This document shows positions 10,082-62,641 of a stretch of 64,000 nt of DNA, in pieces (the first letter of the stretch is position 1; each line of letters begins with the position of its first letter). Source of the stretch: Anadara kagoshimensis (taxonomy: Eukaryota > Mollusca > Bivalvia > Arcoida > Arcidae); NCBI GenBank assembly GCA_021292105.1, contig CM037869.1, positions 47,490,447 through 47,554,446 of the forward strand, read 5' to 3'. The translations under genes and the position numbers were made by a program. The notes under the pieces are model-generated. The model was not told where the DNA came from. It searched no databases and was given only the letters and a program-made list of their open reading frames with translations.

Positions 10082-10122
<41 letters not shown>

Positions 10123-11814
10123 CATTTTTACCTTTCCGATCAGCCGTCCTAACCTCCGTGGTGGTAGTGTTAAACTTAATTTGCCAGTTTTCAAAGTTTT
10201 TTACTTTGCTTCTGGATTGTAATTTGGGCATGAACTATTATGTTTGTTTTTTATTCTTATCTTTCCAATCAGCCGTCCTAACCTCCGTGGTGGTATAGTT
10301 AAACTTAATTTGGCAGTTTTCAAAGTTTTTACTTTGTTTCTAGATTGTGATTTGGGCATGAATTAGTATGTTTGTTTTTTATGTTATTACCTTTCCGATC
10401 AGCCGTCCTCACCTCCGTGGTGGTAGAGTTAAACTTAACTTGCCAGTTTTTAAAGTTTTTACTTTGCCTCTGGATTGTGATTTGGGCATGAATTATAGTG
10501 TTTGTTTGTTTTTTATTCTTACCTTTCCAATCAGCCGTCCTAACCTCCGTGGTGGTAGAGTTAAACTTAATTTGGCAGTTTTCAAAGTTTTTTACTTTGC
10601 TTCTGGATTGTAATTTGGGCATGAACTATTATGTTTGTTTTTTATTCTTATCTTTCCAATCAGCCGTCCTAACCTCCGTGGTGGTAGAGTTAAACTTAAT
10701 TTGGCAGTTTTCAAAGTTTTTACTTTGTTTCTAGATTGTGATTTGGGCATGAATTAGTATGTTTGTTTTTTATGTTATTACCTTTCCGATCAGCCGTCCT
10801 CACCTCCGTGGTGGTAGAGTTAAACTTAACTTGCCAGTTTTTAAAGTTTTTACTTTGCCTCTGGATTGTGATTTGGGCATAAATTATAGTGTTTGTTTGT
10901 TTTTTATTCTTACCTTTCCAATCAGCCGTCCTAACCTCCGTGGTGGTAGAGTTAAACTTAATTTGGCAGTTTTCAAAGTTTTTTACTTTGCTTCTGGATT
11001 GTAATTTGGGCATGAACTATTATGTTTGTTTTTTATTCTTATCTTTCCAATCAGCCGTCCTAACCTCCGTGGTGGTAGAGTTAAACTTAATTTGGCAGTT
11101 TTCAAAGTTTTTACTTTGTTTCTAGATTGTGATTTGGGCATGAATTAGTATGTTTGTTTTTTATGTTATTACCTTTCCGATCAGCCGTCCTCACCTCTGT
11201 GGTGGTGGTGGTAGTGTTAAACTTAATTTGCCAGTTTTCAAAGTTTTTACTTTGCCTCTGGATTGTGATTTGGGCATTTGGGCATGAATTAGTATGTTTA
11301 TTTTTCATTCTTACCTTTCCGATCAGCCGTCCTTACTTCTGTGGTGGTAGTGTTAAACTTAATTTGCCAGTTTTCAAAGTTTTAATTTGCCTCTAGATTG
11401 TGATTTGGGCATGAATTAGTATGTGTTTTTTTTTATTCTTACCTTTCCGATCAGTCGTCTTCACCTCCGTGGTGGTAGAGTTTAAGTTAATTTGGCAGCT
11501 TTCAAAGTTTTAACTTTGCTTTTGTGGTTTGGGCATGGAATGGTATGTTAAGTTTGGTTTATTTAAGAATATAATTCTTCTAGCGTGAAAAACGCTTAAA
11601 CACGATTTCCGATAAATTGAGTACGTTTACGGTATTTATTGTTTTTTCTGTAGTTCAAAAAAATCTGAGAATCTTTTCGTCTAGTGACTGATACTTACTA
11701 CGGATTCTGGCCATGAAAACAATTCGGGAAAAAATTTATAACAAGATCCCATGTGTTGGCTAAACCCTCCGGGGCATTGTGTATCTCCCGTCGGAACATT
11801 GGACGTTCCTGCTC
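7336..11814 (-). CDS. Perlucin-like C-type lectin (minus-strand copy, first exon not found)
   Basis: Read on the minus strand, exons are 11814-11699 (116 bases), 9058-8968 (91) and 7568-7336, with intron phases identical to the plus-strand lectin. Exon 2 gives TQCPGGFSQHMGSCYKF and SWPESV. Exon 3 gives TFCKALNAKLVRIQELEEF. Exon 4 gives GFWIGATDSYEEGKWQWIDP, DPSNGTREDCALMW and GDYYCNSQMHPICEIE. All six long-form CTLD cysteines are present, and the WIGATD core is better conserved than in the sister gene. The expected QPD/EPN triplet reads DPS. The signal-peptide exon should lie above 11814 but I could not identify it. The terminal GA^GTAAG is both a donor and the start of a TAA stop, as in the paralogue. 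The second intron contains the 130-bp tandem array; the third contains a fold-back element. Probably a secreted lectin. Confidence 0.8.
7639..8110. mobile_element. Fold-back element in the minus-strand lectin intron
   Basis: Arms of about 120-130 bp begin CTGTAGGAACCACTGTG and end with its complement, flanking about 200 bp of unique sequence. The right arm repeats TTCCTACAG once more. TAAGCTGACGGATTA (7624-7638) and TAAGCTGACGAATTA (8111-8125) flank it; the repeat begins and ends in TA. Confidence 0.75.
8650..8885 (-). mobile_element. Diverged retroelement tail fragment
   Basis: ccatgcccacaccacaaccc, aggttaacgcgtgaactatc and ctagctaaccatacccacca; only loosely similar to the module. Confidence 0.4.
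9782..10020. repeat. Tandem duplication followed by an inverted third copy
   Basis: An ~87-bp unit (aataactttgatatattttgg, aaaaccggtgtgtaaactgt, cgcggagttata) occurs twice in direct order, then once inverted (cagtttacataccggttttg). Together they can form a large stem. Confidence 0.75.
10020..11545. repeat. ~130-bp tandem array with a 391-bp higher-order unit
   Basis: About 11-12 monomers contain tttctggattgtgatttggg, cctttccgatcagccgtcct and cctccgtggtggtagagtta. Segments starting at 10329, 10720 and 11111 are almost identical, so three monomers (391 bp) form a higher-order repeat. The monomer is related to the retroelement tail on the opposite strand. The array lies within an intron of the minus-strand lectin. 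Confidence 0.85.
10083..10122. repeat. 40-base poly-T tract
   Basis: Uninterrupted T run at the start of the 130-bp array. Confidence 0.9.
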
Positions 11815-13779: not shown

Positions 13780-14335
13780 CTTTTTTTATTTCACATATGG
13801 CGAATATAGGTAGATTAACGGGTTGAGCACCCGGTCTCACTTCTCTGGTGGAAGTTCGTGTTTTTCACTCACTTTGCAAATTTCATTCTTATTTCTTCAT
13901 TTCACATGTGGCGGATGTAGCTAGATAAACGGGTTGCTTACCCTTCCGGAGCACCCGGTCTCACTTTTTTTGGAAGTTCGTGTTTATCACTTACTTTGCA
14001 AATATCATTCGTATTTTTTTTTCTTCATTTCACGTGTGGCGGATGTAGCTAGATAAACGGGTTGCTTACCCTTCCGGAGCACCCGGTCTCACTTTTCTTT
14101 TGGAAGTTCGTGTTTATCACTTACTTTGCAAATATCATTCGTATTTTTTTTTCTTCATTTCACGTGTGGCGGATGTAGCTAGATAAACGGGTTGCTTACC
14201 CTTCCGGATCACCCGGTCTCACTTCTCTGTTGAAAGTTCATGTTTTTACCTACTTTAATTTTTTTTCATTTCACATCTGGAAGATGTAGCTAGATAAATA
14301 AGGTGTGCTTACCCTGCCTCGCTTCTCTGATGGAA
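13780..14335. repeat. ~129-bp tandem array of retroelement-tail monomers
   Basis: About four units containing gtggcggatgtagctagata, cgggttgcttacccttccgg and cacccggtctcacttttctt; two adjacent units near 13990-14220 are nearly identical. It lies between the two divergent lectin genes. Confidence 0.8.
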
Positions 14336-55839: not shown

Positions 55840-58800
55840 CTATGATGGACTTCTTATGTAGGTACACAAAGTTTGTAAATCTACAATTAACATTAACACC
55901 AGGGCAGTTGTCAACACACCGCAGCCGACATAGCCCACTCCACGTGCTGACGGTCGGTTATCGTCTGCACACGTCTTCTGACGTATCGTGGACGAAAGTT
56001 CACTTTTATTCACAGATAAACTGTCAGTAATTTGCTTCATGGCTTTAAGTATTTCTTCCATTGAGGTATTTGAATATTGTGGTAATTCACATTGACAATG
56101 ACAATAACCATTTTCTATGGTGCTCGTTTCCATGGTGATGAAAGATTCTGTTGTTGTTTCGGTTATTGTTGATCGTTGCGTTGTTTCTGTGGTTACTTCT
56201 GGTGTTGTCGTCGTTGTTGTTGGCTGACTCGTTGTTTCTGTTGTCTTGTCATTTGTAGTTGAACGTTGCGTTGTTTCTGTGGTTACTTCTGGTGTTGTCG
56301 TTGTTGTTGGCTGACTCGTTGTTTCTGTTGTCTTTTGATTTGTAGTTGATTGTTGCGTTGTTTCCGTGGTTACTTCTGGTGTTGTCGTTGTCGTTGTTGT
56401 TGGCTGACTCGTTGTTTCTGTTGTCTTTTCATTTGTAGTTGATCGTTGCGTTGTTTCTGTGGTTACTTCTGGTGTTGTTGTCGTTGTTGGCTGACTCGTT
56501 GTTTCTGTTGTCTTGTCATTTGTAGTAACTGTTGATTGTTGTTTGTTTTCATGGTTACGTCTGTTATTGTCGTCGTTGTTGGCTGACTCGTTGTTTCTGT
56601 TGTTGTTGTTCGTTGCGTTGTTTCCGTGGTTACTTCTGGTGTTGTCGTTGTTGTTGGCTGACTCGTTGTTTCTGTTGATATTTCGTTCACCGTTGACTTT
56701 TCATTGGTAGTTGATTGTTCTGTAGTTTCCATTGTTGATTGACTATCTGTAGTAGTTAGTGCCTGTGTTGTTGTAAGTAATGGTTCTGGGCCTGGATTGA
56801 AATAAAATATCGTGTTACTTTAGTTGCAATTTCTGCATATAACAAATCTGGGTCTGAATTGAAATAAATTATGTACAATGTCATGTTTTGTACATGCTTT
56901 TATTTTATTAGCAATTCCTAAACTTTACAGAAATCACAAAAACTATGGATGTTCATACGAAGATGTAGATATTGCAAAATAATTCAAACACAGACGTAAC
57001 AATTCATGATCAAATTCCAATTTCAAAAGGAAAGAAAAAAATTCCAAAACTTGCAAATTATGTTAAGCATGTGAACTTTTAACAGAAAACCCAGGGGGGC
57101 ATCAAACCCCGGCCTCACACATGGAGCAAGCACTCTACCATAAGAATGAAAACGAGTGATTCACAAAACACACTCGCACACCTCGCGAAAGCGTGAACTT
57201 GATCCAAGATTAAATAATTTTTTGTTGTCCAGAATAGCTAGATATTGCTAATGCAACGATGAACAACGATATAGCCAACAATCTAGAAAACAAACCTTTA
57301 TTGCAACACAAACGGAGAAGACTGGTCAAACGCAAGATGGAGACATATCGTACACAAAATCGGTAGAGTGCATACCCAGCCAAAATACATTTGTAGAAAA
57401 AGAGCCATCAAAGGCAGCCATCAATAGTTTAGAGCAGCACCTCTCACCAGCTAGGTTCGTATTTTACTCGGGACTGGCCCCGGTTTCGCAATCATTCCTT
57501 AGCTAAGATTTTCCTTAACTTAAATCTTGCAAATTTTCATATCTTTATAATTTTGTTTAAAATTAAAGATATTGAGAAATTTAAGGTGTCATTTTTAAGA
57601 TCACTTCTTGATTAAAGTGTAACAGTGGACTTTTCGTCAATTTTAGACATTCCGATTACTTAATATTTTTCATCTTTATTGACATTTTTACTAAGAACTT
57701 CCAGGTGTCTTTACTTTACTTTCTATGATATTTGTTGAGAGGTTTATCTTAATCCAGTGACTTGAGATAATTCGTTTCCTAAAACCCTTGATTTACACTT
57801 TTATTATATAACATTAATTACCTGAATCATGTCATTTCTATGTCTTATATCTCTATATTTGTTTGTTTGTACGAGTATTTACAACATATACCTAAGTTAA
57901 GTTTTCGGTAATCAACCAATCAAATGGTTTCAATTAATCTTTTTCGGGTTAATAGATATTCTTTATATCCACGTGAAATCCCGAAATCTGGGCTTTTCGG
58001 ATCTACCGGAGTGAGAGAAGGTTGACACGGAATTTTACCGTTCACTCAAAAATCGTTGTTCAACATTTAATGTCTAAAGCGGATACACGCAGCATTTAAT
58101 ATAATATTTTATTGTGAACTATTTTACGGACATATCGTTTTAGCGGAAACCCGCAATATTATGCATCTGTATGTGAACAAAATTATTATATGAGATTTAC
58201 ATAGAATACACTTTCAAAAGAAACGACCTTAAGTGTTTTTAGTATCTTATTTTTTTTCATTATTTTATTATTAAGTAAGCCGCCGGTCCGTCCAGCTCTA
58301 CCCACCTAACCAGCGACGTTCCCCAACCACTTACGGACCTTATAGTTTTTGGCGCGCTTACAAGTGGAGGAGATATCCGGGTAGCTTCACTTTTAAGCTG
58401 GAGCTACTTTCCTAGTACCTCAAGCCAAGCAACCTGAGAAATATTTTATTAATTTTTGGATTGACCAAAGATTTAGTGATTCTCGTGTGAAAATGGGATC
58501 GTGTTTCCGAAACAAAAATAATTTCCAATGGAGGGATGGATCAAATACATTTAACTCAACGTACAACAGAGATAAACTTTATTATGGATTCGGCCATCAA
58601 GCGCCACATCACTTCGTTGCTCCAAAGTCGCAACACAAACATTACACTCCTCGCCACACTGGAAATTATTTTGTTTATGTGCCACGTTTTCAGCATCATA
58701 GTTATTATCATATTGATGCAAAACATGCACCTCATAATGTCGGAAACTCACGATCAGAATCAACGACTATCAGGAAAACCAAAAGTGCCTATAGAAAATC

Positions 58801-60762
58801 CAGGGACGCAAGACGTTTGAAAGAATTTATCGAGCGTAAGGTTATCTCATCTTCATTTCCATATTCGGAACTTTCGGACAATGACTTTATAAAGTGTGCA
58901 AAAATAAATTCAATTCAACAAAGTCTCCAACTTGGGCATTCAACTTTGCATGTGAAATCTTTAGAACAATCTGTGATGGAGTTGCAAAAAGAGAACAAAA
59001 CGCTTAATGTGAAATACCAACAACTTCAAGAGAGACAAAGCGAGTTAGAAAAACTTCAAGCAGAAAATATGAAACTCCAGGAGGAAATCACAAAATATAA
59101 TTCATTATTACATCTTGCTCATGACTCATTAAAAGAAAACTGTCAAATTCAATCCAGCATGGAACAATTAAAACTCGAACATGAAACTTTAAACCGTGAA
59201 CATGAAAATCTAAAGCAAGAACTTCAAACCCGACTCTATGATGAAACAAATACAACATACAGCACATTAAATCAAGATTCTTGGACTCCGACACAGATAC
59301 AATGTATGCATTCGATACGACAGGAACCTGTGGATTCATGGGAAGGACAAAACAAACAGAACCATTCAACATGTTATTATCAAAACTCTGCTAACCCCTC
59401 CATTCAATACGCTAAAGAATATTCAAATTACCAAGGACATCAACCAGGACGGCCAAACCGACGCCGACGGAAACAGAACAATGGACATTTTAATCAAGGA
59501 TATTAACTCTAACGTTTCATTTTAAATCTCTTAATCAACCATTGTGTGTTTGTTTTTGAGTGATACGTAACTTAATTTATTTCTACTCTGAGGACAGAGT
59601 AAATTTGAGCGGAAGGATATTGTAACAGTGGACTTTTCGTCAATTTTAGACATTCCGATTACTTAATATTTTTCATCTTTATTGACATTTTTACTAAGAA
59701 CTTCCAGGTGTCTTTACTTTACTTTCTATGATATTTGTTGAGAGGTTTATCTTAATCCAGTGACTTGAGATAATTCGTTTCCTAAAACCCTTGATTTACA
59801 CTTTTATTATATAACATTAATTACCTGAATCATGTCATTTCTATGTCTTATATCTCTATATTTGTTTGTTTGTACGAGTATTTACAACATATACCTAAGT
59901 TAAGTTTTCGGTAATCAACCAATCAAATGGTTTCAATTAATCTTTTTCGGGTTAATAGATATTCTTTATATCCACGTGAAATCCCGAAATCTGGGCTTTT
60001 CGGATTTACCGGAGTGAGAGAAGGTTGACACGGAATTTTACCGTTCAACTCTAAACTCGTTGTTTGAACATTTTTATATCTTAAGCGGATACACGCAACA
60101 TATTCAATATCTATTGTGAACATTTTTATTTATTGTGAACTCTTTTACGGACATATCGTTTTAGCGGAAACCCGCAATATTATTCATCTGAATGTGAACA
60201 AAATTATTATATGTGATTTACATAGAATATACTTCCAGAGAAACGACATCAAGTGTTTTTAGTATTTTATTGTTTTCATTATTTTGTTATTAAGTAAGCC
60301 GCCGGTCCGTCCAGCTCTACCCACCTAACCAGCGACGTTCCCCAACCACCTACGGACCTTATAATTTTCGGCGCGCTTACAAAAGCATTTGCGTTTAGTT
60401 TGGACAAAATATTCATCAGTAGTTTCAAAAAGAGATTACAAAAAATTGCTAAATTTAAGTTAAGGAAAATCTTAGCTAAGGAATGATTGTGAAACCGGGG
60501 CCAGATCCTAGTGTGAGGAAATTTGCCAGTCGCTTATATAAAAACAAGGTTGGTGGTTTTCTCAAGGAACACCGGTGGAAGAAATCTTGACTGGGGCGTT
60601 AACCCACTTCACTCAAAAAGTTTGAAGACGTTAACAGACCAGTAGTATTAGTAGTAACCAGCAAGTTATCACAATGCATTTCAACTTTTAGTATTAAAGG
60701 TTACTAATACTTACCGAACCATCCCCATATCTGCAGTGCATCGCCAAAAACAAAATCTTCAG
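55840..60762 (-). CDS. Mucin-like single-pass membrane protein, C-terminal exons, frameshifted
   Basis: On the minus strand exon 60762-60715 (EDFVFGDALQIWGWFG) joins in phase to exon 56791-55840. The second exon encodes a Thr-rich stalk with about six imperfect repeats of ETTSQPTTTTTPEVTTETTQ, a likely O-glycosylated mucin region. It continues with YCHCQCELPQYS, the conserved-looking LSVNKSELSSTIRQK and ADDNRPSARGVGYVG, and a transmembrane helix (GCGVLTTALVLMLIV). A short tail YIRSPS precedes TAG at 55840. From memory, this Cys-pattern plus LSxxxRKxxxADDxRPSA plus TM ending recurs in molluscan surface proteins with varied ectodomains. Near 56550-56565 one repeat carries a net one-base loss that shifts the reading frame. 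The stalk is open on both sides, in different frames. Upstream exons (ectodomain, signal peptide) were not found. The intron contains the LTR element. Confidence 0.65.
57618..58362 (+). repeat. 5' long terminal repeat
   Basis: Begins TGTAACAGTGG and ends GCGCGCTTACA; nearly identical to 59621-60381. It should carry the element's promoter, but I see no unambiguous TATA box. Confidence 0.9.
58365..58381 (+). promoter_or_regulatory. Putative primer-binding site of the LTR element
   Basis: TGG followed by AGGAGATATCCGGG, two bases after the 5' LTR. Its complement ends in TCCA, as in tRNA-Cys (discriminator U), with several mismatches to a metazoan tRNA-Cys as I remember it. The position is right; the tRNA identity is tentative. 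Confidence 0.45.
58493..59506 (+). CDS. Gag-like coiled-coil protein of the LTR element (337 aa)
   Basis: A single uninterrupted ORF fills most of the element's interior. The first ATG is at 58493; the frame is also open just upstream. The N-terminal 90 residues are rich in His, Tyr, Asn and Phe. Residues about 94-116 form a basic block (RKTKSAYRKSRDARRLKEF). Residues about 155-246 are a strong Leu/Glu/Gln coiled coil (LQKENKTLNVKYQQL, LQAENMKLQEEI, LKLEHETLNREHENLKQEL). The C-terminus is Gln/Asn-rich with a basic cluster (RPNRRRRKQ). There is no CCHC zinc knuckle and no catalytic motif. The likely role is to bind element RNA and multimerise as a particle or RNP protein, with the polymerase supplied by a related autonomous element. 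That is inference; I do not recognise a named family. The intact frame suggests recent selection or recent insertion. Confidence 0.75.
   Translation: MGSCFRNKNNFQWRDGSNTFNSTYNRDKLYYGFGHQAPHHFVAPKSQHKHYTPRHTGNYFVYVPRFQHHSYYHIDAKHAPHNVGNSRSESTTIRKTKSAYRKSRDARRLKEFIERKVISSSFPYSELSDNDFIKCAKINSIQQSLQLGHSTLHVKSLEQSVMELQKENKTLNVKYQQLQERQSELEKLQAENMKLQEEITKYNSLLHLAHDSLKENCQIQSSMEQLKLEHETLNREHENLKQELQTRLYDETNTTYSTLNQDSWTPTQIQCMHSIRQEPVDSWEGQNKQNHSTCYYQNSANPSIQYAKEYSNYQGHQPGRPNRRRRKQNNGHFNQGY
59621..60381 (+). repeat. 3' long terminal repeat
   Basis: Matches the 5' LTR almost base for base. The main difference is an insertion of about 16 bases around 60075-60130. Confidence 0.9.
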
Positions 60763-62569: not shown

Positions 62570-62641
62570 GGGCTCGTCCGGGATTTGAACCCGGGACCTC
62601 TCGCACCCAAAGCGAGAATCATACCCCTAGACCAACGAACC
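62570..62641 (-). tRNA. tRNA-Pro (anticodon UGG)
   Basis: The minus strand folds into a complete 72-nt cloverleaf. The acceptor is GGTTCGT/ACGAGCC (one G-U pair), the D arm contains GGTCTAGGGGTATGAT, and the anticodon stem CTCGC/GCGAG encloses the loop TTTGGGT, giving UGG. The T arm is CCCGGGTTCAAATCCCGGA-like with a perfect B box. There is no intron and no encoded CCA. It stands alone, unlike the tRNA-like SINE heads, so it looks functional. Confidence 0.93.

What the first reader, a model, noticed from the sequence alone, without database searches (positions are those of the whole stretch)
57618..60381. Intact gag-only LTR retrotransposon encoding a coiled-coil protein
Two near-identical 750-bp LTRs, a 4-bp target duplication, a PBS-like site and a PPT-like stretch enclose one unbroken 337-aa ORF and nothing else. 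The protein is not a standard gag: it has no zinc knuckle, a His/Tyr/Asn-rich front, a basic block, about 90 residues of coiled coil and an RRRR tail. This looks like a self-packaging parasite of an autonomous LTR element, possibly an undescribed family. The ORF remaining open while LTRs have begun to diverge hints at selection on the protein.
Basis: partly seen in the sequence, partly recalled or inferred. Interest (0 to 1): 0.75.

Follow-up and report, generated by a model that had tools for sequence, protein, structure and literature searches.

The report
Single-gene LTR retrotransposon with coiled-coil protein
This is a real, recently active kind of mobile element that carries only one gene, for a coiled-coil protein of RNA-binding type; it has relatives in at least five other families in the same genome, and in the copies read none carries the enzymes needed to copy itself.

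Summary
Observation confirmed. Window 57618-60381 is an LTR element: LTRs of 745 and 761 bp, AAAG target duplication, PBS, one 337-aa frame, pre-PPT hairpin, PPT, no pol. The genome holds 16 full-length interiors; 7 of 7 copies with two full LTRs have a perfect 4-bp duplication, and three other intact-frame copies have no LTR substitutions: the family moved recently. Intact frames show purifying selection (dN/dS 0.32-0.48). The element is not isolated: protein searches reached five related families (B-F), 1.8-2.5 kb, one frame, no pol in the copies read. C-F carry a double CCHC zinc knuckle like that of a Ty3/gypsy Gag, then a basic core and coiled coil; no capsid domain was found. Family A lacks the knuckles. 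A hairpin before the PPT covaries between families. No autonomous helper was found. Best reading: a lineage of satellite LTR retrotransposons that make their own nucleocapsid-like coiled-coil protein and borrow reverse transcriptase and integrase from a Ty3/gypsy-type helper. Closest known kind: plant TR-GAGs.

The parts
57614..57617 (.). target-site duplication AAAG, left
57618..58362 (+). 5' LTR, 745 bp, TGTAACAG...CTTACA
58365..58381 (+). primer-binding site TGGAGGAGATATCCGGG, 2 bases after the LTR
   Evidence: within 1 mismatch in 14 of the 16 full A copies; primer tRNA not identified
58381..58407 (+). possible leader stem-loop just after the PBS
   Evidence: compared by eye; folds no better than shuffles (z -0.48, 83 nt); one pair is C-A in many copies and the C8 copies break it in part
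58493..59506 (+). single 337-aa frame (end includes stop)
58775..58906 (+). residues 95-138: basic core with KSx5RDx2R, the part shared with families B-F
58940..59275 (+). residues 150-261: long helix, coiled coil
   Evidence: single-sequence model, blocks mostly pLDDT 95-98; searches match coiled-coil proteins only
59459..59473 (+). RRRRK tail (residues 323-327)
59584..59601 (+). pre-PPT hairpin TACTCT-GAGGAC-AGAGTA
   Evidence: 66-nt stretch, z -2.74, 3 of 200 shuffles as good; covariation
59607..59620 (+). polypurine-tract-like stretch GAGCGGAAGGATAT before the 3' LTR
59621..60381 (+). 3' LTR, 761 bp; its second half is of another subtype than that of the 5' LTR
60382..60385 (.). target-site duplication AAAG, right

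Best explanation
The element is a copy of 'family A', one of at least six related non-autonomous LTR retrotransposon families in this genome. Each codes for one protein built like a nucleocapsid plus an oligomerisation rod: in C-F a double CCHC zinc knuckle of Ty3/gypsy Gag type, then a conserved basic core, then a long coiled coil; A lacks the knuckles and keeps the core, coil and a basic tail. Inferred mechanism: the LTR drives an mRNA; its protein binds mostly its own RNA (cis preference), perhaps through the pre-PPT hairpin and the leader, and oligomerises through the coil into a particle-like RNP; reverse transcriptase, RNase H and integrase come in trans from a Ty3/gypsy-type helper; a tRNA primes at the PBS and integration makes 4-bp duplications. 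Shown: anatomy, recent mobility, selection on intact frames, family relations, hairpin covariation, zinc-knuckle similarity. Inferred: RNA binding, oligomerisation, cis preference, loss (rather than absence) of the knuckles in A, helper type.
For: 16 full-length interiors at 83-100% identity; 7 of 7 copies with two full LTRs have a perfect 4-bp duplication, and L016, L019, L023 have 0 LTR substitutions (L016 one gap). Intact frames in 4 of 16. dN/dS: A 0.32-0.48 (6 pairs), B 0.20-0.40 (15 pairs), bootstrap upper bounds of these 21 pairs at most 0.82; C 0.15-0.48 in 35 of 36 pairs, one pair having no synonymous change, several with dS under 0.03 (no bootstrap). A core vs C core score 97 against shuffles 24.2 +- 4.6, 0 of 5000; B vs C 72, 0 of 5000. 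Double knuckles of one member each of C, D, E, F vs a Ty3/gypsy Gag of this genome: 87, 77, 56, 87 against shuffle means 24-29, 0 of 3000 each. One D and one E copy read in full: LTR pairs 99.3% and 99.7% identical around one frame, no pol. Pre-PPT hairpin: 17 of 54 cells changed on both sides, covariation 0.870 against 0.294 +- 0.067, 0 of 500 shuffles, slid versions at most 0.324.
Against: No helper was found: 30 of 30 A/B PBS hits carry A or B leaders; of 30 C/D PBS hits 27 lie at C/D protein matches and 3 are chance matches; so the trans-mobilisation step is unproved. The one Ty3/gypsy element looked at (L086) has what looks like another PBS. No NC, capsid or RNA-binding domain was detected in the A protein, and Pfam's zf-CCHC on family C scores 10.6 bits against a cut-off of 20.8. 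The model is poor outside the coil (mean pLDDT 58.8). 12 of 16 A copies are broken, and 2 of 16 lack the PBS within one mismatch. In the hairpin count two of five measures do not exceed the shuffles (pairs with a change on both sides 5, 93 of 500; further pair types 7, 444 of 500), and the 9 rows come from four families only. The leader stem is not unusual by energy. dN/dS used chosen intact frames only.
Confidence: 0.72

Rival explanations
1. Ordinary deletion derivatives: each family is an internal-deletion product of a separate autonomous element that keeps the gag start, as with many TR-GAG or BARE2-type elements (BARE2 recalled).
For: Single gag frames between LTRs are known in plants (PMC9784723 passages); zinc knuckles resemble Ty3/gypsy; the repeat searches score only part of their candidates (40 of 123; 40 of 178), so longer copies may be missed.
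Against: The proteins are homologous between families; no capsid domain; no pol-sized frame in the copies read; no autonomous element with the same PBS within one mismatch. One shared origin is simpler than six separate deletions.
Confidence: 0.1
2. The helper is not Ty3/gypsy but a BEL/Pao or retrovirus-like element; everything else as in the best explanation.
For: Helper not found; 4-bp duplications and these LTR ends fit several integrase classes (established knowledge, recalled).
Against: The knuckle pair aligns without gaps with a Ty3/gypsy Gag of this genome. Three other LTR-like loci share the TTCGAGGACGAA hairpin with a PPT and TGTNACA, but their coding content is undetermined. A like motif in plant Ty3/gypsy elements is recalled, not tested.
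Confidence: 0.12
3. The protein is not a packaging protein but a regulator, for instance an inhibitor or modifier of the helper's Gag, kept because it favours the carrier element.
For: No capsid; a coiled coil could bind another Gag; family A and short B lack the knuckles yet show dN/dS well under 1.
Against: C-F have NC-type knuckles plus a basic core, the usual make-up of an RNA-binding protein; the A tail is basic.
Confidence: 0.1
4. A host gene captured between LTRs, with chance survival of the frame.
For: Pfam and PDB match only generic coiled coils.
Against: The homologues read with flanks lie between repeated ends (A, B, C, D, E; F in part); dN/dS is far below 1 between copies; NC-type knuckles in C-F.
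Confidence: 0.03

Closest known systems
TR-GAG elements of plants (terminal-repeat retrotransposons with a GAG domain)
   Same: Two LTRs around one gag-type frame, no pol, some able to move (PMC9784723, passages seen).
   Different: Those carry GAG and are described from plants in what I read; here no capsid domain is detected, the order is zinc knuckles - basic core - coiled coil, and several homologous families exist in one genome.
biv-TRIM of bivalves (PMC6934838; abstract and one results section) and Helenus/Ajax (PMC10886601; abstract and one section)
   Same: Non-autonomous LTR elements of animals; PPT kept; 4-bp duplications in animal Helenus.
   Different: Those are short: biv-TRIM has 202-218-bp repeats around 77-80 bp, Helenus at most 1263 bp in that paper. 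No Rfam family reaches its threshold in this element.
Ty3/gypsy (Metaviridae) Gag
   Same: The double CCHC knuckle of C-F aligns ungapped over 36 residues with the Gag of L086.
   Different: In L086 the knuckles start after about 248 residues of the frame and a 928-aa RT-RH-IN-like frame follows (domain names by eye); here they are N-terminal and followed by a coiled coil, with no pol.
LINE-1 ORF1p (function only)
   Same: RNA-binding protein that trimerises by a coiled coil (PMC5940361, start of abstract in the listing).
   Different: No RRM was found by Pfam in A, B or C; the carrier here has LTRs, PBS and PPT.

Membership tests
LTR retrotransposon (non-autonomous) | paired LTRs, fixed-length target duplication, PBS and PPT in place | tested here: met
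LTR retrotransposon (non-autonomous) | recent mobility in several genomic places | tested here: met
TR-GAG | one gag-type frame between LTRs, no pol | tested here: met
TR-GAG | recognisable GAG (capsid) domain | tested here: not met
   by sequence; by fold, but on a single-sequence model of low confidence
Ty3/gypsy (Metaviridae) | PR-RT-RH-IN pol | tested here: not met
   no pol-sized frame in the copies read
Ty3/gypsy (Metaviridae) | Gag nucleocapsid with CCHC knuckle(s) | tested here: inconclusive
   absent in family A; present in C-F by pattern and shuffle test, below Pfam's cut-off in C
TRIM | short, non-coding interior | tested here: not met
   337-aa frame under selection
Satellite of a Ty3/gypsy helper | autonomous partner sharing LTR ends, PBS and hairpin | tested here: inconclusive
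   none found; repeat searches score only part of the candidates, so not excluded

The most novel reading that the evidence does not exclude
Families A-F are an old, self-standing lineage of pol-less LTR retroelements ('satellite retrotransposons') that has long replicated with a capsid-free, zinc-knuckle plus coiled-coil RNP protein of its own, exchanging LTRs between families and living on the enzymes of unrelated helpers; in family A even the zinc knuckles are gone and RNA binding rests on the basic core and tail.
Probability: 0.45. Interest if true: 0.82.

Novelty: new variant of a known kind. Interest (0 to 1): 0.68.

Why it matters
Non-autonomous LTR elements are mostly thought of as short-lived deletion products (general view, recalled). 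Several homologous families, without pol wherever read, with proteins held by selection and an RNA hairpin held by compensatory change, would show that such parasites can persist as a lineage and can replace the capsid by a coiled-coil RNP protein. It makes two questions testable: what is the least a Gag must do to favour its own RNA, and which helper supplies the enzymes.

Tried and rejected
Capsid fold: AlphaFold2 on the single sequence is confident mainly in the helix 150-261; Foldseek against PDB has no match below E 1.4. Pfam/PDB sequence hits are coiled-coil noise (best CEP135, E 0.0016). Rfam: nothing at threshold in the element; one sub-threshold snoR4a match on the minus strand (E 0.82). 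Viral and prokaryote contigs: no relative by the pattern-plus-tblastn method. Longer copy at C9:41049767 (LTR spacing 2.8 kb): the extra 0.88 kb is a piece of a Penelope-like reverse transcriptase (named from recalled motifs), an insertion, not pol of the element. Helper candidates by LTR junction at C12:4731615 and C12:34097019: no element. Helper candidates by PBS at C3:44526572, C17:28112569, C2:57132473: chance matches. L086, with frames of 465 and 928 aa of Ty3/gypsy type: other PBS by eye (its LTRs lie outside or at the edge of the piece). tRNA primer: 9 of 30 PBS hits read TGGTGGAGAT, which would suit a tRNA-Ala 3' end; recalled, not tested. Copy numbers are lower bounds. Repbase/Dfam and other animal genomes could not be searched; absence of a description in print rests on the searches only.
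Full report
What is there. It lies in a 1.115-Gb genome held as G000, on contig C13.

Copies and age. The LTR query gives 43 matches (123 candidates, 40 scored), the interior 44 matches, 16 of them over the whole interior (44 candidates, 40 scored). Of these 16 copies (L009-L024), 4 have an intact 336-337-aa frame (the window, L016, L019, L023) and 12 carry a stop, a frame-shifting indel or a lost start. In 7 of 16 both LTRs matched over full length; 7 of 7 have perfect 4-bp duplications. LTR substitutions: 0/748, 0/739, 0/731 in L016, L019, L023; 1/756 in L024; 2/747 in L017; 10/720 in L018; 24/743 in the window copy. So the family moved very recently. In the window copy 23 of 24 substitutions lie from column 431 on (P about 3e-8 under even spread, cut-point chosen afterwards), and among the 14 loci compared the second half of the 5' LTR is nearest to the copy at C9:34.49 Mb (93.7%), that of the 3' LTR to the copy at C9:45.60 Mb (96.9%). 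That is conversion or recombination, not clock-like ageing.

Selection. Among the four intact A frames dN/dS is 0.32-0.48 in 6 of 6 pairs. For B I used six frames (L042, L043, L047, L051, L054, L057) of the seven among 13 B loci that end in the family's tail (L067 was left out without a reason): 0.20-0.40 in 15 of 15 pairs. Bootstrap upper bounds of these 21 pairs reach at most 0.82. In nine C frames (L073 cut short by my fetch, L075 truncated) 35 of 36 pairs give 0.15-0.48 and one has no synonymous change; several pairs have dS under 0.03, and no bootstrap was run. Using intact frames leans towards low values, but the divergence (dS up to 0.36 within families) built up in source copies, so selection acted on them. 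Selection on a protein that could be supplied in trans suggests that it favours its own RNA; that step is inference.

A wider group. The first 70 or so bases of the interior also match 17 other places. Those read are a second family, B, with other LTRs but the same PBS, leader and PPT surroundings and a homologous protein (255-326 aa). The A protein finds 64 matches in the genome (115 of 115 candidates scored): A copies, 17 B-type matches, and a third group C. One C copy read in full (L069) has LTRs with a GTAC duplication around one 315-aa frame. With a C protein as query 99 matches appear (184 candidates, 126 scored), with more groups of uniform frame length. One D and one E copy read in full show LTR pairs (99.3% and 99.7% identical) around one frame of 315 and 306 aa, with duplications GTGT and ATAT. 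One F copy has a 364-aa frame, and only 125 bp of repeated ends were seen, without a checked duplication; its protein finds the C, D and E groups again (68 matches, 225 candidates, 112 scored). In these three lists no open frame exceeds 379 aa except C1:20395939 (465 aa), a Ty3/gypsy-type Gag matched only over the zinc-knuckle part (E 0.049). The elements measure about 2.8 kb (A), 2.5 (B), and 1.8-2.0 (C-F).

The protein. The C-F members begin with a double CCHC knuckle of 36 residues that aligns without gaps with the Gag of L086 (scores 87, 77, 56, 87; shuffle means 24-29; 0 of 3000 each). Then comes a basic core with KSx5RDx2R, present in A-F, and a long coiled coil. A and C cores, outside the coil, align far above chance (97 against 24.2 +- 4.6; 0 of 5000). 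Long B forms (L042, L051) have a Cys-rich stretch where A and short B have none. So the A protein looks like a derivative that lost its knuckles. No capsid domain was recognised by sequence or fold search; the model is reliable only in the coil, and Pfam's zf-CCHC on C stays below its cut-off.

RNA signals. A hairpin just before the PPT has loop GAGGAC (GAGGTC in E) and a stem that differs between families yet stays paired. On 9 sequences of A, B, D, E, 52 of 54 cells pair, 17 are changed on both sides, 5 of 6 pairs have such changes, and the covariation score is 0.870 against 0.294 +- 0.067 (0 of 500 shuffles), slid controls at most 0.324; two further measures (number of pairs with such changes; further pair types) do not exceed the shuffles (93 and 444 of 500), and the rows come from four families only. 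C has the hairpin with loop GAGAC, one base out of register in the alignment, and was left out of that count; F has GGCAT-GAGGAC-ATGCC by eye. A stem after the PBS can be drawn in all families, but for A it folds no better than shuffles, one of its pairs is C-A in many copies and the C8 copies break it in part. The PBS is within one mismatch in 14 of the 16 full A copies (not in L022 and L024).

The helper. No pol-bearing element with these signals was found. PBS A/B: 30 hits, 17 A and 13 B by their leaders. PBS C/D: 30 hits, 27 at C/D protein matches (two of them read with flanks, L069 and L083) and 3 chance matches read and rejected. LTR junction: 52 hits, 2 in the control; 50 are of A, B or C by place or sequence, two are not elements. 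Hairpin TTCGAGGACGAA with PPT: 9 hits, 0 control; 6 of D type and 3 of another LTR-like kind with no pol frame in 1.1 kb upstream. The searches are partial, so a helper may exist with other signals. Calling the helper Ty3/gypsy rests on the knuckles and agrees with the 4-bp duplications.

Known or new. In the papers that could be searched, plant TR-GAGs (passages of PMC9784723) and animal TRIMs (PMC6934838, PMC10886601; abstracts and one section each) are nearest; nothing in the listings or passages I saw describes a capsid-free coiled-coil frame or such a group. Repbase was not available, so single families may have entries. I rate it a new variant of a known kind, with a more novel reading (an old satellite lineage) that the evidence does not exclude.

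Noticed in passing
window 57466-57537 and 60441-60512: 72-nt inverted repeats, 90% complementary, flank the LTR element outside its duplication: it seems to have landed inside a small palindromic (foldback/MITE-like) element.
   Followed up: partly
L034/L049 (G000:C15 about 22.92 Mb): An element with family B leader and protein piece but an LTR of family C type: LTR exchange between families.
   Followed up: partly
G000:C12:6264868-6268512 and C15:22739186-22749417: LTR hits of family C at regular spacing, like tandem arrays; likewise clustered A copies on C8 about 14.34-14.42 Mb.
   Followed up: no
L026 2148-3030, L069 480-536: Pieces of a Penelope-like element inside or beside these elements; by eye its tail resembles the window's 130-bp tandem repeat at 13825-14256.
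   Followed up: no
window 10114-11521: About 11 head-to-tail copies of a 129-130-bp unit, next to a poly-T run.
   Followed up: no
window 55840-56700, minus strand: Thr-rich repeat frame of 286 aa over 87/180-bp tandem units, with a hydrophobic stretch near its end; mucin-like by eye.
   Followed up: no
window 62570-62641, minus strand: tRNA-Pro (TGG), Rfam 53.6 bits.
   Followed up: no
L042, L051: Long family B proteins have a Cys-rich stretch CVRCSKYSCFCNRYH that the shorter B copies lack.
   Followed up: partly
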